From positions 1 to 25,471 of the IMG/VR virus record IMGVR_UViG_3300006805_000143: a stretch of DNA of 25,471 nucleotides; one strand, written 5' to 3'. This document shows, in pieces, positions 7,789 through 25,471 of the stretch. The notes under the pieces were generated by a model. It did no database searches. It was not told the origin of the DNA and was given only the letters and a program-made list of their open reading frames with translations. Positions within the stretch are counted from its first letter, which is position 1, and each line of letters opens with the position of its first letter. The DNA is from a virus. The position numbers were made by a program, and so were the translations under genes.

Positions 7789-8997
7789 ATGGCAAATAGC
7801 ATTCTTACCATCGACATGATCACGCGCAAGGCGCTTGAGATTCTCGAAAACAATCTGGTTCTGACCCGTAACGTCAATCGTCAATACGACGATTCTTTCG
7901 CCGTTGAAGGCGCTAAAATTGGTTCCACACTGCGTATCCGTCTGCCGGATCGCGCTCTGGTGACCGACGGCGCCGCCCTGCAAGTTCAGGACGACAACGA
8001 GCAATTCACCACCCTGTCTGTGGCTAACCAAAAGCATATCGGCGTGAACTTCACTTCTGCCGAACTGACCATGCAATTGGATGACTTCGCAGAACGTGTG
8101 TTGAAACCACGTATTTCCCAATTGGCTTCCAGCATTGATGCTGACGTTGCCAATGCTTACCGTACCATCGGTAACTCAGTCGGCACGCCAGGAACAACGC
8201 CTTCAACTTCGTTGGTTCTGCTGCAAGCTCAGCAAAAACTGAACGAAAACGCTGCTGTTATGTCCCCACGTTACGCAACCGTCAACCCTGCCGCTAACGC
8301 TGGTCTGGTTGAAGGCATGAAAGGTCTGTTCAATCCAACCGACACTGTTAGCCGCCAATTCAAAAACGGCATGATGGGTACTGGCGTGTTGGGCTTTGAA
8401 GAAATCAACATGTCGCAGTCGATCAAACAGCACACCACGGGTTCCCGTGATGCGTCTGCTGCCACCATCGTTGCCGCTTCGGTGACTTCGGAAGGTGCTT
8501 CGACCCTGTCGCTGTCACAAGCTTCGGTTACCACCACGATTAAAGCTGGCGACGTGTTCACCATCGGTAGCGTGTTTGCGGTCAACCCACAAACCCGTGA
8601 ATCCACTGGTTCGCTGTTCCAGTTCGTCGCTCTGGCTGACGCTACTGCCGTGTCTGGTACTTGGACTGTTACCGTTGCTCCGATCTATTCGGCTAATCAT
8701 GCTTTGGCAACCGTCAACGCTCTGCCGCTGGTCAACGCCACTGTTACTTTCTTGGGCGCTGCTTCTACTCAGTACGCTCAGAACTTGGTCTACCACAAAG
8801 ATGCGATCACTTTTGCAACCGCTGACTTGCTGCTGCCACAAGGCGTAGACATGGCTTCGCGTGCTGTTCATAACGGTATCTCCCTGCGCGTGGTTCGCCA
8901 GTACGATATTAACAATGACCGTATGCCTTGCCGTATTGACGTCCTGTACGGTTACAGCACCATCCGTCCACAAATGGCTGCTCGTATCTGGGGCTAA
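7789..8997 (+). CDS. major capsid (coat) protein, P22 gp5 type
   Basis: The coat protein forms the icosahedral head. The start is placed at ATG 7789 (MANSILTIDMITRKALEILE), 9 bases after an AGGA ribosome site; an upstream in-frame ATG at 7744 lies inside the scaffold gene and is rejected. This gives 402 residues, against about 430 for P22 gp5. The N-terminal arm with EILENNLVL, the segment VGVNFTSAELTMQLDDF-like around 78-95 and the P22-coat-like order of helical and beta regions support the assignment, as does its place after the scaffold. Codon use is GC-rich and biased (CTG, GGT, CGT), as expected of the most abundant virion protein. A TTCG-loop terminator follows the stop. Confidence 0.92.
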   Translation: MANSILTIDMITRKALEILENNLVLTRNVNRQYDDSFAVEGAKIGSTLRIRLPDRALVTDGAALQVQDDNEQFTTLSVANQKHIGVNFTSAELTMQLDDFAERVLKPRISQLASSIDADVANAYRTIGNSVGTPGTTPSTSLVLLQAQQKLNENAAVMSPRYATVNPAANAGLVEGMKGLFNPTDTVSRQFKNGMMGTGVLGFEEINMSQSIKQHTTGSRDASAATIVAASVTSEGASTLSLSQASVTTTIKAGDVFTIGSVFAVNPQTRESTGSLFQFVALADATAVSGTWTVTVAPIYSANHALATVNALPLVNATVTFLGAASTQYAQNLVYHKDAITFATADLLLPQGVDMASRAVHNGISLRVVRQYDINNDRMPCRIDVLYGYSTIRPQMAARIWG

Positions 8998-9002
8998 GTC
9001 TG

Positions 9003-9024
9003 AAGGGGGCTTCGGCCCCTTTTT
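9003..9024 (+). terminator. intrinsic terminator after the coat gene
   Basis: AAGGGGGC (9003-9010) pairs with GCCCCTTT (9015-9022) around a TTCG tetraloop and is followed by T residues. It begins six bases after the coat stop. It is the first of three near-identical hairpins within 0.75 kb. As a terminator inside a late operon it would reduce, not abolish, downstream expression. Confidence 0.85.
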
Positions 9025-9048
9025 CAAAATTCTTTTAAGGAAAATATC

Positions 9049-9441
9049 ATGGCAATTCCAAATGGCGCAGGCGGCTATCAACTTGGTGACGGCAATCTGA
9101 GCGAAGTAAGTATTGGCGTTCAATCAGCTCCAGTGGCTAAAACCGCTGCTGCCACTCTGACCGCTGCTGAACTGACTAACGGCATCGTTACTTATACCGG
9201 CGCTGCTGTTAACCTGACTCTGCCTACCGTGGCTGACCTTGAAGTGCTGGTTTCCAGTGCTAAAGTGAATAGCTGCTTTGACTTCAGCATCATCAACACC
9301 GGCGCAACTAATGCTGCCACCGTGGTTGTTGGTACTGGCTGGACTCTGGTTGGCGTGGCTGCTGTTTCGGCTGTTACTTCGGCTACATGGCGCGCACGCA
9401 AGACCGGCGACGGTACTTGGATTGCATACCGTCTGGCTTAA
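9049..9441 (+). CDS. putative capsid decoration or minor head protein
   Basis: This 130-residue protein is Ala/Thr/Val-rich with almost no charge. Alternating beta-type segments include TAAELTNGIVTYTGAAVNLTL (about 41-61) and ARKTGDGTWIAYRLA at the end. Proteins of this kind are frequent directly after the coat gene in podoviruses and are often found in virions. The leader (AAGGAAAATATCATGGCAA) closely matches that of the coat gene, and the gene lies between two TTCG hairpins, so it forms its own expression cassette. Codon use is as biased as in the coat gene, which suggests high expression. The decoration role is inference. Confidence 0.75.
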   Translation: MAIPNGAGGYQLGDGNLSEVSIGVQSAPVAKTAAATLTAAELTNGIVTYTGAAVNLTLPTVADLEVLVSSAKVNSCFDFSIINTGATNAATVVVGTGWTLVGVAAVSAVTSATWRARKTGDGTWIAYRLA

Positions 9442-9445
9442 TACG

Positions 9446-9469
9446 AAGGGGGCTTCGGCCCCTTTCTTT
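9446..9469 (+). terminator. second TTCG-loop terminator
   Basis: The stem AAGGGGGC (9446-9453) pairs with GCCCCTTT (9458-9465) around TTCG, followed by CTTT. The stem-loop sequence is identical to the one at 9003-9022 and starts five bases after the preceding stop. The T tract is interrupted by a C, so termination may be weaker. Confidence 0.8.
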
Positions 9470-9481
9470 AAAGGATAAATC

Positions 9482-9718
9482 ATGGCAAATACAAAAGCAG
9501 TCGGCATTGCATATGCTGACCCGTCATTTGACAACGCCCAATACAAACTGTATTTGGTGGCTGACTTGCCTGCCGCATCGGTTGCTTTGGCAGGAACGCG
9601 TGCTGCGGTTAGTAACTCTAATGCTGCTTACACAGCGGGCATTGGCGCAACGGTTGCAGGTGGCGGCGCGTTTATCGTGCCTGTGTTCTGTAACGGTGTA
9701 AATTGGCTTATCGGCTAA
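9482..9718 (+). CDS. small uncharacterised head-region protein
   Basis: A 78-residue protein, Ala/Gly/Val-rich, with NAQYKLYLVADLPAASVALAG near residues 18-38 and a hydrophobic Gly-rich end (GGGAFIVPVFCNGVNWLIG). AAAGGA seven bases before the ATG is a good ribosome site, and the leader resembles those of the two genes upstream. It has no clear signal peptide. Its position between two TTCG hairpins and next to the decoration-like gene suggests a virion component made in quantity, but no family is recognised. Confidence 0.7.
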   Translation: MANTKAVGIAYADPSFDNAQYKLYLVADLPAASVALAGTRAAVSNSNAAYTAGIGATVAGGGAFIVPVFCNGVNWLIG

Positions 9719-9723
9719 TATGA

Positions 9724-9741
9724 ATGGGGCTTCGGCCCCAT
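9724..9741 (+). terminator. third TTCG-loop hairpin, without a T tract
   Basis: ATGGGGC (9724-9730) pairs with GCCCCAT (9735-9741) around TTCG, again just after a stop codon. Unlike the other two, it is followed by CTAAAC rather than T residues. It is probably a poor terminator and may instead protect the 3' end of the upstream message or be a decayed copy. Confidence 0.55.
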
Positions 9742-9748
9742 CTAAACT

Positions 9749-9922
9749 ATGAACATTTACCTCCAACACCCTGTGCATGGCCGCAAGATCGCAACAATGG
9801 AACTTGAAGCGGAACAGGATGAACAAAACGGCTGGACGCGATACAATGACGACATTGTGGAAGCGCCTAAAGTCGAAAACGAATTAGTTAGCCGACGCAA
9901 GCGCGCAACTAAAGGAAATTAA
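9749..9922 (+). CDS. small conserved phage protein between coat and gp4 genes
   Basis: A 57-residue protein starting MNIYLQHPVHGRKIATMELE, with EQNGWTRY in the middle and a basic end (RRKRATKGN). This matches a recurrent small phage protein type (xVYLxHPxHG.KVATME..A..DE.NGW.RY) found just after head genes, usually listed as hypothetical. It begins seven bases after the third hairpin and ends two bases before the gp4-like start. No strong ribosome site is seen. Function is unknown; the location suggests a head or connector accessory. Confidence 0.8.
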   Translation: MNIYLQHPVHGRKIATMELEAEQDEQNGWTRYNDDIVEAPKVENELVSRRKRATKGN

Positions 9923-10644: not shown

Positions 10645-11139
10645 CTAAATAGTGCAAGCACTATGGTATTTACGTTTTCCAGCCAAATAAGCTTGGTGAG
10701 CTTTTTCCGGCGTTAAATAATCACCAAGCCATTTGGATTTGCCGTTAACTGACATGCTTGCGCGCCATTTATTTTGAAACCATATAACGCCCATAAAACC
10801 GGATTTATTTCGTTTATTTGGTTTCTTAATATTTTGAGAATTACCTTCTGCGGTTACATTTCTAAGATTAGCTATGCAATTGTCCGCTTTTTTGCAATTG
10901 ATATGGTCAATCAAACCGGTAGGCCAAACGCCATGCACGTAAAACCACGCCAATCTGTGCGCTTTGTACACTTTACCGTTGATACCAATTGTAACGTAGC
11001 CAATTCTTTTTTCAATGCAGCCTGCAATAGTACCGGCTTTAACAGCTTTGCTTCTATTTGTTTTCCATATAAAAATTCCCGTATTTCGGTTATAGTCCAG
11101 AATTGCGTGCAGGTATTCAATCGTAAGTTCAAGTGCCAT
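10645..11139 (-). CDS. free-standing HNH homing endonuclease with AP2-like domain
   Basis: HNH homing endonucleases cut phage genomes lacking them and so spread by repair. The 164-residue protein has an HNH core: H61 in KAHRLAW, the IDHIN motif (77-81, H79) and N91 in ANLRNVT. NSQNIKKP..NKSGFMGV leads into an AP2-like DNA-binding region (about 114-160; GVIWFQNKWRASM, GKSKWLGDYLTPEKAHQAY). It lies antisense between the gp4- and gp10-like genes and is more AT-rich than its neighbours, as expected for an inserted selfish gene. Its ribosome site AAGGAG, five bases before the ATG, lies partly in a hairpin. There is no sign of an intron. Confidence 0.92.
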   Translation of the reverse strand: MALELTIEYLHAILDYNRNTGIFIWKTNRSKAVKAGTIAGCIEKRIGYVTIGINGKVYKAHRLAWFYVHGVWPTGLIDHINCKKADNCIANLRNVTAEGNSQNIKKPNKRNKSGFMGVIWFQNKWRASMSVNGKSKWLGDYLTPEKAHQAYLAGKRKYHSACTI

Positions 11140-22510: not shown

Positions 22511-22684
22511 TTATCCTCTTGCGCGTATGGCTGCGCTAAGGTAAAGAAATAGCCCCAACGTAGCTGCACCTTCGCTAATGTAAATTTCACCAATCTCATC
22601 AACAAGGGTTGCGCACGCTTCCCGTTCGGCCAGCACCGCCTTTTCCAATTCCGCTTCAATAATAGATCGTAGTGTGTGGTTCAT
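22511..22684 (-). CDS. small helical phage protein with IRARG tail
   Basis: The 57 residues read as helix (LRSIIEAELEKAVLAEREAC), then ATLVDEIGEIYISEGAATLG and a C-terminal LSAAIRARG. Small phage proteins with a REACA...AAIRARG pattern are common in early regions and are usually unannotated. The ATG at 22684 overlaps the preceding stop as ATGA. The last codons, for RARG, contain AAGAGGA, which is the ribosome site for the next gene. Confidence 0.72.
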   Translation of the reverse strand: MNHTLRSIIEAELEKAVLAEREACATLVDEIGEIYISEGAATLGLFLYLSAAIRARG

Positions 22685-22812
22685 AGCCAGCCCATATTTA
22701 ACGCCATGCTAAGCAATAAAAATACAGAACCAAAAAGTCCATTAAACCAACGGGGCATAATTGGGGCCATATAAACAGTGCCGATTAAGCCTAAAAGTTG
22801 AACTTCAGTCAT
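22681..22812 (-). CDS. tiny predicted membrane protein
   Basis: A 43-residue protein with two hydrophobic stretches (VQLLGLIGTVYMAPIMP, about 4-20, and LFGSVFLLLSMALNMGWL, about 26-43) separated by RWFNG. It shares one base with the ThyX stop and overlaps the next gene as ATGA, so it is translated in register with the operon. It could be an inner-membrane protein affecting the host early in infection, but nothing specific can be said. Confidence 0.65.
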   Translation of the reverse strand: MTEVQLLGLIGTVYMAPIMPRWFNGLFGSVFLLLSMALNMGWL

Positions 22813-23495
22813 TATTGCACCCCCATCAATGCAGCCCAACTAACAGGAAACAGCGCGCTCATTTCATTAGCGATCAATGCGGCAACTTCACGCGACTCTG
22901 CTTGGCTATGCGCATCCAAGCGAAGCCGGCACATGTCAGCGATAGCGCCCAACGATCCAGACCAAACCCATTCAGTCATCGTATTCAACAGTAACGCAGC
23001 GCGTGCTTGCTCAGGGCAAACGCCAAGGTCAAGTAAATCTTCGTAGGCATATAGCGAATGGGCTATTAAGTTAGCGAATATTTCATCAGCGACTTTTAGT
23101 TTGTCACCCGTTAACGCGCCACCAGACCCCTGCTTAACATTGTCGGCTGCCTTACGCCATTCCATTACGTGCATCTCAGGCTCACTGCTGACGTATCGGC
23201 GGGATACTTCATTCCAAGGCATAAACTTATGCTTAACCAACTGCCGCGCGACAAAGATCGGCGCCTTGACGCGGAACGTTGCAAATGCGTGATTGAACGG
23301 GCTAGTGTGCTTGTGGCACGCCAGATAATTAATCAGCTTTACATCTGCTGGCGACAACTTTTTAACTGTTGACGCTTTGTAATCCTCGCTGATTGTGCAA
23401 CCTAAGTCCCAAGTGCTTTCTTTTTCAAACGATACCCTGGCAGCGTTAACTACGGATAAGTCTGAACCCATATGGTCGATTAGTGTAACTTTCAT
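22812..23495 (-). CDS. thyX: flavin-dependent thymidylate synthase
   Basis: ThyX makes dTMP from dUMP using FAD and NADPH, supplying thymidine for phage DNA. The 227 residues show HKHTSPFNHA (61-70), the signature region K88-H-K-x7-S98 within VKHKFMPWNEVSRRY (the classic form is RHRx7S; spacing is kept), and a C-terminal block with EQARAALLLNTMTEWVWSGS and LRLDAHSQAESR, matching the dUMP/FAD-binding end of the family. AAGGA nine bases before the ATG is the ribosome site. It overlaps the MazG-like gene by four bases, so both nucleotide enzymes are made together. Confidence 0.95.
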   Translation of the reverse strand: MKVTLIDHMGSDLSVVNAARVSFEKESTWDLGCTISEDYKASTVKKLSPADVKLINYLACHKHTSPFNHAFATFRVKAPIFVARQLVKHKFMPWNEVSRRYVSSEPEMHVMEWRKAADNVKQGSGGALTGDKLKVADEIFANLIAHSLYAYEDLLDLGVCPEQARAALLLNTMTEWVWSGSLGAIADMCRLRLDAHSQAESREVAALIANEMSALFPVSWAALMGVQ

Positions 23496-23797
23496 TTTTG
23501 CTCATCCTTAACAAATACACCATTCGGCAACAGCGTTCCTTTACGGTCTTTAATCTCGTCGTAAGCGGCTTGTAAGCAGCGTTCCAGCGTAGTGCCGCGC
23601 AAAGCGCAATACAAGATTAGCGTAACCAATACATCGCCAACGCCATCCTCAATGCCCGCCGTATCGTTTTTAATCTCTGCATCACACAACTCGCCCAGTT
23701 CGCTAACCGTTTTCATTAGCTGAACATACGGTTTAGCGTTTGGGATAATTTTTCTATCTTCTGCCCACTGGATTACTTTAATTTCTAATTCGTTCAT
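23492..23797 (-). CDS. MazG-like nucleotide pyrophosphohydrolase
   Basis: MazG-type enzymes hydrolyse (d)NTPs to monophosphates, and in phages they may shape the nucleotide pool or lower stress signals. The 101 residues show the all-alpha core: ELGEL (33-37, with E33 and E36) and DGVGDVLVTL (51-60, with D51 and D55), the expected acidic magnesium-binding clusters in consecutive helices. ATGA overlaps couple it to the upstream gene and to thyX. It is a compact single-domain form. Confidence 0.88.
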   Translation of the reverse strand: MNELEIKVIQWAEDRKIIPNAKPYVQLMKTVSELGELCDAEIKNDTAGIEDGVGDVLVTLILYCALRGTTLERCLQAAYDEIKDRKGTLLPNGVFVKDEQK

Positions 23798-24012
23798 TTC
23801 ATGTAGCTCATCAATTCAGCGTTACGTTTAGCTTCAGACCATCGTTTGCTACCTTCGGCTTGCATGAGCGCTAACGCAAACTGCAAGAAATTCGATAGCT
23901 TATCAATGTCCTCCTCGTTTACTTCACCGTTGCGAATGTCGTTAATGATGCGCACGCATTGCTGTCTGCTGTACAGCACATTGTGCGCAAAGTCGCGGTC
24001 ACGGTAGCTCAT
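23794..24012 (-). CDS. small hypothetical protein
   Basis: The start is set at ATG 24012 because it overlaps the preceding stop as ATGA; a TTG nine bases upstream is less likely. The 72 residues are charged and helical (RDRDFAHNVLYSRQQCVRII, then NDIRNGEVNEEDIDKLSNFL) and contain an acidic NEEDID patch and a basic KRWSEAKRN segment. No family is recognised. It lies between a small membrane protein and the MazG-like enzyme in a tightly coupled series. Confidence 0.7.
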   Translation of the reverse strand: MSYRDRDFAHNVLYSRQQCVRIINDIRNGEVNEEDIDKLSNFLQFALALMQAEGSKRWSEAKRNAELMSYMK

Positions 24013-24197
24013 TTTTTGCAAATCCTTTTCTTTGCTTCTTTCAGATTGCTATCGAACAGCCATGCGGAACACTGCTTGTCTAAGTCTATCGCTGGCGCGG
24101 TAACAACGATAACCTGCCCCTTACCCAACTCAAAACAAGCCACGCCGTATAACGAGAACGCGATAAAAAACACGCCTACCATCATAAAATCTTTCAT
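24009..24197 (-). CDS. small membrane-anchored protein
   Basis: The start is set at ATG 24197, which follows AAAGGAGAAG and overlaps the preceding stop as ATGA; a longer frame to 24260 is rejected. The 62 residues have an N-terminal hydrophobic segment (MMVGVFFIAFSLYGVACFEL, about 5-24) followed by a short outside or periplasmic part with AIDLDKQCSAWLFDSNLKEA and a basic end (KKRICKK). The cysteine after GVA is not a canonical lipobox. Similar AIDLD.QC..WLF..N proteins recur in phages, with no known role. Confidence 0.72.
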   Translation of the reverse strand: MKDFMMVGVFFIAFSLYGVACFELGKGQVIVVTAPAIDLDKQCSAWLFDSNLKEAKKRICKK

Positions 24198-24424
24198 GTG
24201 TTCTTCTCCTTTAATGTTGCTTCTGCCCACCGCAGGATTCCTATAGCCGGTTCTCTCCATATAGCAAAATCATTTTCAGTCAGCCCTACCCATTCTTTCT
24301 CAGGCTGCGCTAGTGCTGTGCGTAGTGCTTCAATTGCTTGTTTAATTGGCGTTTTCCATATGGGCTCATTTGCGTGTGAATTTTCCAGCGCATCAAGCGC
24401 CATTTCCATTGCTTCTCTGCTCAT
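24194..24424 (-). CDS. accessory protein with shared EALR/EWVGLT/LKEKNT modules (shortest copy)
   Basis: The 76 residues begin MSREAMEMALDALENSHANE, then EALRTALAQPEKEWVGLTEN (about 32-51) and end AEATLKEKNT. The EALR.ALAQPE and EWVGLT segments also occur in one or both of the two upstream genes, and the end is nearly the same in all three. The start overlaps the previous stop as ATGA behind AAGGAGAAG. Proteins with an EWVGLTDEE segment are common in phages and prophages of Burkholderiales but uncharacterised, as far as I know. No enzyme motif is visible; the shared modules may be protein-protein contacts. Confidence 0.72.
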   Translation of the reverse strand: MSREAMEMALDALENSHANEPIWKTPIKQAIEALRTALAQPEKEWVGLTENDFAIWREPAIGILRWAEATLKEKNT

Positions 24425-24938
24425 GTGTTCTTCTCCTTTAGCTTTGCTTCAGCCCACCAAGCAGCAGATTCCCATGCTTGGCTAGTAACCCATGAGTCCT
24501 TGTTTCCTTCTCTTATTTCTTTATCAGTCAGCCCTACCCATTCTTTCTTTCGGTAGAACCCCGCGCTGTTCAGCACTTCTTCTAGATTCGGGCCAAATAT
24601 TTTTGTTGGCTTATCCGTCAGCCCTTGCCATTCTTTTTTATTTTTACGTGCCGCTATTGCTGCATCAAGCTGCTCAATTTGATAAAAACGAATGTCATCC
24701 ATTATATTTAATGAAGCGTACTCTGATTTCATGTTTCGATTAATCATGTCCCAAAGCCTGTCTCTGTGTTTTTGTAGAGCGTCAGCTATAACGTCATAGG
24801 CATCCATTGTTCTTCTCCTTTAGCTTTGCTTCGATGGCTCTGTAAAATTCTTCATACGGCGGCCTTGAAAAATCAGTTCTGCCTTGCGTTGCAAGTATTT
24901 TTACTTCCTTATCCGTCAACCATACCCATTCTTTCTTT
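24271..24938. repeat. four dispersed copies of a 30-bp unit (EWVGLTDKE module)
   Basis: Copies lie near 24271-24300, 24521-24550, 24611-24640 and 24909-24938 (plus-strand core CAGCCCTACCCATTCTTT with small changes). They encode the EW(V/Q)(G/W)LT(D/E) segment in three consecutive genes, twice in the one at 24421. The range given covers all copies. Confidence 0.8.
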
Positions 24939-25193
24939 GATAGCCATTTCTCTGGCGCTCCGCGAAATACTGGTTCCCTGCCTTCTAGTACCGCAAGCAT
25001 AACTTCCATGCCGGTATACATGCCGTGAAAATAATGGTCATAATTCCACGTACCATCACGCCCTTGCACTTCAAGCATTTCTTTTAGCTTTATTAACGGC
25101 TTTGGACACTTTTTACAATATCCACCGATACCACATTGCCCACCGTCACATTCGGCTGGTTCAGGCTGCGCTAGTGCTGCGCGTAGTGCTTCA
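24300..25193. repeat. dispersed 33-bp direct repeat (EALRxALAQPE module)
   Basis: Positions 24300-24332 and 25161-25193 agree at 32 of 33 bases and encode the EALR(T/A)ALAQPE segment in two different genes of the leftward operon. The coordinates given span both copies. The near identity at nucleotide level points to recent duplication or exchange. Confidence 0.85.
24421..24807 (-). CDS. accessory protein with two EWxGLTDK repeats
   Basis: The 128 residues start MDAYDVIADALQKHRDRLWD, a helical domain not shared with the other copies. Two near-identical decapeptides follow, KKEWQGLTDK (57-66) and KKEWVGLTDK (87-96), 30 residues apart, and the end is WAEAKLKEKNT. The duplication is also visible in the DNA as two 30-bp units (24611-24640 and 24521-24550). 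AAAGGAGAAG precedes the ATG, and the end overlaps the next gene as ATGA. It looks like a mosaic of a unique N-terminal domain and shared modules. Function is unknown. Confidence 0.72.
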   Translation of the reverse strand: MDAYDVIADALQKHRDRLWDMINRNMKSEYASLNIMDDIRFYQIEQLDAAIAARKNKKEWQGLTDKPTKIFGPNLEEVLNSAGFYRKKEWVGLTDKEIREGNKDSWVTSQAWESAAWWAEAKLKEKNT

Positions 25194-25297
25194 GCAAGCA
25201 TTACAAACTGTGGTGTATAGGAATTTGGTGGAGGCATTTGAAAAGCAAGGTATTCAATCTGCGTAGCGATTCGCTTTATTGCTTCTCTGTCAGTCAT
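24794..25297 (-). CDS. accessory protein with Cys cluster and shared modules (longest copy)
   Basis: The 167 residues begin MTDREAIKRI, then EALRAALAQPE (36-46), which matches the copy at 24194 in protein and DNA. A unique middle has four cysteines (C50, C55, C61, C64: CX4C..CX2C) that could bind zinc. KKEWVWLTDKE (about 121-131) and a C-terminal EAKLKEKN follow. Here the usual stop after LKEKNT is lost: the frame reads on for a few codons (GCL) into the next gene, giving a 14-base overlap. AAAGGAGAAG lies before the ATG, which overlaps the upstream stop as ATGA. Confidence 0.72.
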   Translation of the reverse strand: MTDREAIKRIATQIEYLAFQMPPPNSYTPQFVMLAEALRAALAQPEPAECDGGQCGIGGYCKKCPKPLIKLKEMLEVQGRDGTWNYDHYFHGMYTGMEVMLAVLEGREPVFRGAPEKWLSKKEWVWLTDKEVKILATQGRTDFSRPPYEEFYRAIEAKLKEKNNGCL

Positions 25298-25471
25298 GCG
25301 TTCTTCTCCTTTGCGTACAGTTCTTCGGCAAGCAGATACCCCTCAAGTGGCCACAGCTTATTGATGGCATCCTCATAAGCGAACTTCTCACCTAGCCCTT
25401 GGTTATACTTGCTCGGGTCTACACAGGCGCTCATACCCCAGACTGAATACCCGTTGACCATCTCTAGCTGA
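25294..25471 (-). CDS. phage gp49/gp66-family protein, N-terminus beyond window
   Basis: This partial gene runs off the right edge; about 59 C-terminal residues are visible. VNGYSVWGMSACVDPSKYNQ, then GLGEKFAYEDAINKLWPLEG and YLLAEEL match the N4 gp49 / Sf6 gene 66 family (Phage_gp49_66), a small phage protein of unknown role. The end AKEKNA and the overlapping AAGGAGAAG site repeat the junction found after the next three genes. It is the most upstream visible gene of the leftward operon; the promoter must lie beyond the window. Confidence 0.85.
   Translation of the reverse strand, partial: QLEMVNGYSVWGMSACVDPSKYNQGLGEKFAYEDAINKLWPLEGYLLAEELYAKEKNA

What the first reader, a model, noticed from the sequence alone, without database searches (positions are those of the whole stretch)
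24194..25471. Tandem accessory genes built from shared short modules
Three adjacent minus-strand genes have unlike N-terminal or middle parts but share two short modules: EALR(T/A)ALAQPE (two genes, 32/33 identical at DNA level) and EW(V/Q)GLTDK (three genes, four copies). They also share a common end, AEAKLKEKNT. The pattern is a mosaic in which unique domains are placed between reusable linkers, not simple gene duplication. It could be a site where early accessory genes are exchanged between phages. The function is unknown, and the cluster is the best candidate here for an undescribed system.
Basis: partly seen in the sequence, partly recalled or inferred. Interest (0 to 1): 0.62.

Follow-up and report, generated by a model that had tools for sequence, protein, structure and literature searches.

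The report
Phage gene array with swappable modules
A phage from an environmental DNA sample carries a row of small genes assembled like snap-together parts, whose shared joints double as the start signal of the next gene; the same parts recur in new combinations in over 200 related genes of otherwise unlike phages, which suggests a way for phages to keep making new accessory proteins.

Summary
Three minus-strand genes (24194-25297), chained by overlapping stops and starts, share a DNA-conserved joint (W[V/Q]GLTDE), a linker (ALAQPE) and a common end. The common end is also the ribosome-binding site and start of the next gene (AAAGGAGAAGAACAC-ATGA). Among 235 unlike proteins of this build from IMG/VR contigs there are 168 N-part and 171 C-part clusters in 206 combinations. 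DNA similarity between pairs that share one side mostly stops at the 24-nt W joint. Relatives with 65-90% identical core proteins carry unlike arrays, and phages with unrelated virions share array modules. Modules are mostly under purifying selection. No informative family match was found in Pfam, PHROGs, NCBIfam or PADLOC. Best explanation: a cassette array of small accessory genes, diversified by recombination at short conserved joints that keep reading frame and translational coupling. The constant helical C-terminal module may be a docking handle and the variable parts host-directed effectors; that part is inference. Shuffling of phage modules is a known kind; joints inside coding sequence that carry the next gene's ribosome-binding site appear to be an undescribed variant.

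The parts
24194..24424 (-). array gene 1 (76 aa): N helical module + ALAQPE linker + W joint + own C segment + end
24421..24807 (-). array gene 2 (128 aa): N module, W joint, short KPTKIFGPN module, second W joint, C segment IREGNKDSWVTSQAWESAAWWAE, end
24794..25297 (-). array gene 3 (167 aa): N part, ALAQPE linker, Cys-rich module, SPO1 gp34.22-like core, W joint, C segment, end
25294..25470 (-). 3' part of a Phage_gp49_66 family gene (95 aa in G001), whose end carries the same ribosome-binding/start joint
24009..24197 (-). next gene in the chain (62 aa, MKDFMMVG..., N-terminal hydrophobic stretch); its start overlaps the stop of gene 1
24194..24212 (-). end joint of gene 1: codes LKEKNT, and is Shine-Dalgarno + start of the next gene
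   Evidence: (D3, D4)
24421..24439 (-). end joint of gene 2
   Evidence: (D3, D4)
24803..24821 (-). end joint of gene 3 (start of gene 2 lies inside it)
   Evidence: (D3, D4)
25294..25312 (-). end joint of the gp49_66 gene
   Evidence: (D4)
24270..24300 (-). W joint copy 1 (gene 1)
   Evidence: (D1)
24518..24548 (-). W joint copy 2 (gene 2, second)
   Evidence: (D1)
24608..24638 (-). W joint copy 3 (gene 2, first)
   Evidence: (D1)
24906..24936 (-). W joint copy 4 (gene 3)
   Evidence: (D1)
24300..24332 (-). ALAQPE linker, gene 1
   Evidence: D5
25161..25193 (-). ALAQPE linker, gene 3 (97% identical DNA)
   Evidence: D5
25100..25159 (-). Cys-rich module PAECDGGQCGIGGYCKKCPK, found at DNA level in 38 loci
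24935..25099 (-). core module related to phrog_23796 / SPO1 gp34.22, found in 27 loci
24830..24907 (-). exchangeable C segment of gene 3 (cluster C1, seen on several unlike N parts)
24451..24519 (-). exchangeable C segment of gene 2 (cluster C2, seen on several unlike N parts)
22511..22684 (-). gene of a second module family (EREACA...AIRARG); its start is the polymorphic junction in G001

Best explanation
This is a chained array of small phage accessory genes built as exchangeable cassettes. Shown: each gene ends in bases that do two jobs, coding a conserved C-terminus (EAKLKEKN) and supplying the Shine-Dalgarno sequence and overlapping start codon of the next gene; inside the genes lie DNA-conserved in-frame joints (24-nt TGG-GTN/CAR-GGG-CTG-ACN-GAT-GAR-GAR, and the 33-nt ALAQPE linker); modules on either side of the joints occur in many combinations; similarity between related genes starts or stops at the joints; most tested modules are under purifying selection; the array differs between phages with similar cores. 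Inferred: the swaps happen by homologous or annealing recombination at these short joints, between co-infecting phages and between array copies within one phage, which keeps reading frame and translational coupling intact so that recombinant products are expressed. Inferred with low confidence (about 0.3): the constant C-terminal helical module is a docking or oligomerisation handle, and the variable parts (membrane-like segments, Cys-rich knuckles, small helical domains) are effectors against changing host targets or defences.
For: 235 proteins: 168 N clusters, 171 C clusters, 206 combinations; pairs with the same C part share the N part in only 19 of 163 cases, pairs with the same N part share the C part in 19 of 267. 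In 53 pairs alike upstream but unlike in C, DNA similarity ends 3-42 nt after the W codon, median 24 nt; in 63 pairs alike in C but unlike in N it ends within 10 nt upstream of W in 41. Synonymous codons in the joint are fixed beyond background (GGG 81% against 20%, CTG 76% against 14%, GAT 92% against 51%). 45 of 49 adjacent array genes overlap by 4 or 8 nt. pN/pS 0.03-0.26 for four tested modules, 0.60 for a fifth. Core proteins 65-90% identical but arrays unlike in G014 and G031; modules shared with G003, whose virion genes are unrelated. G001, 99.8-100% identical to the window, has at its contig end an array gene end fused to the MNHTL gene exactly at the ribosome-binding site/ATG. L010 has the ribosome-binding element read in frame (KKKGEEHM) inside a fused gene, a likely recombination scar. 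ERF recombinase in 3 of 10 array contigs.
Against: No ERF or RecT gene was found in the window's own phage, so the recombinase is unidentified there. Pairs are not independent and the first set was chosen for unlike C parts. Assortment is not free: 36 combinations where free assortment gives 44 and full linkage about 20-23. Many similarity edges lie at other places. One C segment shows weak constraint (pN/pS 0.60). No direct evidence for expression time, docking or any target; the AF2 model of gene 1 has no structural relative.
Confidence: 0.72

Rival explanations
1. Ordinary duplication and divergence of one gene family with a fixed domain order; shared motifs are what is left of the common ancestor.
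For: Three adjacent genes with similar ends; W joint and end always in the same order.
Against: Nearly identical modules sit beside unrelated ones; 206 N-C combinations; joints keep synonymous codons while flanking modules differ.
Confidence: 0.06
2. The shared ends and joints are conserved only as DNA (ribosome-binding site, recombination homology); the protein ends are by-products with no function of their own.
For: The LKEKN codons are nearly invariant and coincide with the Shine-Dalgarno sequence; the C segments differ widely; pN/pS 0.60 for segment C1.
Against: W and L of the joint are conserved in all members as residues while synonymous sites vary; the end conserves E-A-.-L upstream of the Shine-Dalgarno part; other modules show pN/pS 0.03-0.26; the C end models as a helix.
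Confidence: 0.25
3. A dedicated diversifier (reverse-transcriptase DGR, integron-like or site-specific recombinase) moves the cassettes.
For: Cassette-like organisation with a constant joint.
Against: No reverse transcriptase in 10 array contigs; tyrosine integrase in only 4 of 40 and not in this phage; the joints are coding sequence and no Rfam family matches the window. Serine recombinases were not searched.
Confidence: 0.05
4. The mosaics are assembly chimeras made at repeats in metagenome data.
For: The array records are metagenome assemblies; the G001 variant lies at a contig end.
Against: The same combinations recur in different samples (window/G001, L007/L008, L014/L015, L023/L024, L030/L031); the joints are shorter than usual assembly k-mers (own knowledge); chimeras would not create hundreds of unlike partners under purifying selection.
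Confidence: 0.04

Closest known systems
PeSLs (promoter early stem-loops), mobile regulatory cassettes of T4-type phages (Arbiol 2010, Comeau 2014, cited in PMC4503421; the original papers were not held)
   Same: Short repeated expression signals between small genes of unknown function act as homology for shuffling them.
   Different: PeSLs combine an early promoter and a stem-loop. Here the element is a ribosome-binding site embedded in coding sequence with a 4-nt gene overlap, and further joints lie inside genes. No promoter or terminator excess was seen in the array.
Ea22 proteins of lambdoid phages (PMC7093339)
   Same: Proteins of an early region with unlike C-terminal domains and a constant short tail (K/R-G-E); in lambda the tail codons AAAGGAGAG are Shine-Dalgarno-like.
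   Different: One gene in the lambda region read here, another tail, no W joint, and no Pfam match of array members to that family.
Domain mosaicism of phage proteins (Smug et al. 2023, PMC10684548)
   Same: Otherwise unrelated proteins share recent fragments; the authors expect more in accessory proteins and proteins of unknown function.
   Different: They describe mainly receptor-binding proteins, lysins and replication proteins; here the joints are defined short sequences that also carry the next gene's start signal.
PHROG 23796 / Bacillus phage SPO1 gp34.22
   Same: Homologous to the core module of gene 3 (residues 68-119, E 8e-10; 40-47% identity).
   Different: Only the core (about 45-51 residues) matches; the joints and the rest of gene 3 do not.

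Membership tests
PeSL mobile regulatory cassettes | early promoter plus stem-loop between genes | tested here: not met
   no minus-strand promoter-like or terminator-like site in the array; genes overlap, so there is no intergenic space
PeSL mobile regulatory cassettes | repeated element associated with shuffled neighbouring genes | tested here: met
Ead/Ea22-like proteins | match to a curated Ead/Ea22 family model | tested here: not met
   93 members give only two single weak Pfam matches and two NCBIfam ones, none of them Ea22
Ead/Ea22-like proteins | K/R-G-E C-terminus | tested here: not met
   ends are LKEKN(T/G/NG)
Diversity-generating retroelement targets | reverse transcriptase in the same genome | tested here: not met
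   0 of 10 array contigs
EF-hand proteins (calmodulin) | helix-loop-helix with a conserved DxDxDG calcium loop | tested here: not met
   the profile hits calmodulin EF-hand IV at E about 1e-4 through LTDEE, but the loop is variable in length and has no conserved Asp
Known defence families (PADLOC) | match to a PADLOC model | tested here: not met
   0 of 93; the library holds defence rather than counter-defence models

The most novel reading that the evidence does not exclude
A phage-borne plug-in system: a constant C-terminal docking module recruits an open-ended, constantly reshuffled set of effector domains to one host or phage partner, and the joints are selected at DNA level so that any recombinant is in frame and translated.
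Probability: 0.28. Interest if true: 0.82.

Novelty: new variant of a known kind. Interest (0 to 1): 0.62.

Why it matters
Phage genomes are full of small orphan genes whose origin is unclear. Here the parts, the joints and the likely exchange points can all be read from sequence, so the birth of new phage genes by recombination can be tested directly. If the constant end is a docking module, finding its partner would bear at once on the role of hundreds of proteins that no family library describes.

Tried and rejected
Family libraries gave no informative match for the array proteins beyond the gene 3 core. Fold comparison of the gene 1 model found nothing. AF2 of gene 3 was too poor to use (pLDDT 55). 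The calmodulin similarity was rejected, see the membership test. GTDB genomes: the first search found none; a DNA pattern found real members in four beta-proteobacterial MAGs and one Flavobacterium MAG fragment, the rest of the 40 hits looked like chance. Phage records: only partial matches, the best to metagenome-derived 'Manatee Spring' records. An overall test of similarity edges showed only about twofold enrichment at the joints with most edges elsewhere, so the argument rests on the conditioned test. My first count of start signals behind array genes used too loose a background and was replaced. Literature searches for the joint peptides and for beta-proteobacterial phage mosaics returned nothing.

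Full report
What is there. The window is an entire 25,471-base IMG/VR record. Its right end carries a minus-strand chain of small genes: a gp49/Sf6-66 family gene (cut by the record end), gene 3 (167 aa), gene 2 (128 aa), gene 1 (76 aa) and a 62-aa gene with a hydrophobic N-terminus. Each gene overlaps the next by 4 nt (14 nt between genes 3 and 2). AAGGAGAAGAAC occurs exactly four times in the window, always at these junctions, and a W-joint pattern is found 4 times against 0.14 expected.

The common end is a dual-use element. On the coding strand the end reads CTA AAG GAG AAG AAC AC-ATGA. In the frame of the finishing gene it spells LKEKNT and stops at TGA; to the ribosome it is a strong Shine-Dalgarno sequence 7-8 nt upstream of an ATG that overlaps the stop. 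Variants (KEKNNG, KEKNG) keep about the same spacing with the start codon moved. In 49 adjacent array pairs, 37 overlap by 4 nt and 8 by 8 nt.

The same build elsewhere. The distinct proteins with the build [variable part]-W.GLT(D/E)-[about 10-25 variable residues]-(A)IEAKLKEKN number 235, a few of them chance frames. N parts fall in 168 clusters, C parts in 171, with 206 combinations. The variable parts include hydrophobic membrane-like segments, Cys-rich knuckles, EPVAW...PLYTAPP modules, NDFNPDWDAMAVMVEEQQRM helices and the SPO1 gp34.22-like core. One alignment shows 13 proteins with nearly the same core but at least five unlike C segments and several unlike N parts.

Where the parts are joined. 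In 53 pairs that are alike for 90 nt before the W codon but have unlike C segments, DNA similarity stops 3-42 nt after the W codon begins, with a median of 24 nt, the length of the WVGLTDEE codons. In 63 pairs with like C segments and unlike N parts, similarity stops within 10 nt upstream of the W codon in 41; most of the longest ones share the whole middle module. These pairs are not independent, and the first set was chosen for unlike C parts. Synonymous codons in the joint are far more uniform than elsewhere in the same genes (GGG 81% against 20%, CTG 76% against 14%, ACG 64% against 17%, GAT 92% against 51%), which fits spread of the joint as DNA. Assortment is broad but not free (36 combinations among 50 genes; 44 expected under free assortment, about 20-23 under linkage).

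Population and genome context. Contig G001 (37,296 bases) is the same phage, circularly permuted (99.85% over 22.7 kb, 100% over 2.8 kb). Its right end carries a variant in which an array gene end (...SFHDAICRAEAKLKEKNT) runs straight into the MNHTL gene through the ribosome-binding/ATG joint, where the window has another gene. This is consistent with exchange at the joint within one population, but it lies at a contig end. The phage has P22-like portal and coat, a family A DNA polymerase, a RepB-primase/DUF5906 protein, a DUF2800 nuclease-like protein and a SNF2-type helicase. The array lies beside the replication genes. G014 and G031 have the same layout with most main core proteins 65-90% identical, yet unlike arrays. 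G003 shares replication proteins (62-69%) but has an unrelated virion block, and still shares the gene 3 core and the EPVAW module. Among 40 array or end-joint contigs, six had P22-like portals over cut-off, two HK97-type portals and two T7-type connectors. Tyrosine integrases were found in 4 of 40 and RecT in 1 of 40; ERF recombinase in 3 of 10 and reverse transcriptase in 0 of 10. Real members in cellular assemblies were found only in four beta-proteobacterial MAGs and one Flavobacterium MAG fragment; a beta-proteobacterial host is therefore likely but not shown.

Are the proteins functional? pN/pS is 0.14 for the gene 3 core, 0.03 for the DWDA module, 0.05 for one EPVAW module, 0.26 for the gene 2 C segment and 0.60 for the gene 3 C segment. 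So most tested modules are under purifying selection. AF2 with 82 aligned rows gives gene 1 as all-helical (pLDDT 84; helices 3-16, 21-24, 26-39, 50-54, 60-75). The W joint precedes the short helix at 50-54 and the common end lies in the last helix. No fold match was found. No informative family match was found in Pfam, PHROGs, NCBIfam or PADLOC for 93 diverse members.

How it most likely works. Shown: the dual-use ends, the in-frame joints, the recombined modules, the different arrays on like cores. Inferred: exchange by homologous or annealing recombination at 24-33 nt joints. Because every cassette ends with the start signal of the next gene and every internal joint is in frame, recombinants are translated. 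L010 shows what a misaligned event may leave: the ribosome-binding element read in another frame (KKKGEEHMN) inside a fused protein. A second family (EREACA...AIRARG) uses the same principle: 44 of 55 genes have a start codon overlapping the stop by 4 nt behind a Shine-Dalgarno-like sequence. The function of the products is open. The constant helical end on very unlike partners, some membrane-like, is what a docking handle would look like, and fast turnover beside replication genes is what effectors against host defences would look like; I give that about 0.3.

Novelty. Module shuffling in phages is known: PeSLs in T4-type phages (described in PMC4503421), Ea22 in lambdoid phages (PMC7093339) and domain mosaicism at large (PMC10684548, which expects more in accessory proteins and proteins of unknown function). 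What I found no record of is a set of joints inside coding sequence that double as the next gene's start signal, across some two hundred proteins with no family entry; a text search for the joint peptides found no paper, though such peptides are rarely printed. I rate it a new variant of a known kind.

Noticed in passing
window 22511-22684 (-); L221, L225 and others: Second modular gene family, EREACA...AIRARG(E/Q), whose ends also encode a Shine-Dalgarno-like sequence for the next gene; 55 non-redundant genes, 44 with 4-nt overlap.
   Followed up: partly
window 8992-9029, 9435-9472, 9712-9749: Three copies of a GGGGCTTCGGCCCC stem-loop, each near the end of one virion-region gene and just upstream of the next start; two copies also share the following ribosome-binding site and gene start. 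Reminiscent of shuffling linkers.
   Followed up: no
L207 18182-18296 (contig G001 37182-37296): Contig end carries a variant of the MNHTL gene (EEELQKAYERGAIDEREECADLV against EAELEKAVLAEREACATLV) behind an array gene end; a strain variant or an assembly branch.
   Followed up: partly
L249 548-560 (lambda ea22 end): The K/R-G-E tail of Ea22, whose significance PMC7093339 calls unknown, is coded in lambda by AAAGGAGAG, a Shine-Dalgarno-like sequence; possibly the same principle, though no start codon follows directly in lambda.
   Followed up: no
window 10645-11139 (-): AP2/HNH endonuclease gene (homing-type) on the opposite strand between virion genes.
   Followed up: no
window 22812-23495 (-) and 23492-23797 (-): ThyX thymidylate synthase and MazG-like pyrophosphatase genes downstream of the array on the same strand.
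   Followed up: no
L010 5001-5561: Array gene with the ribosome-binding element AAAGGAGAAGAACACATG read in frame as KGEEHM, a probable recombination scar.
   Followed up: partly
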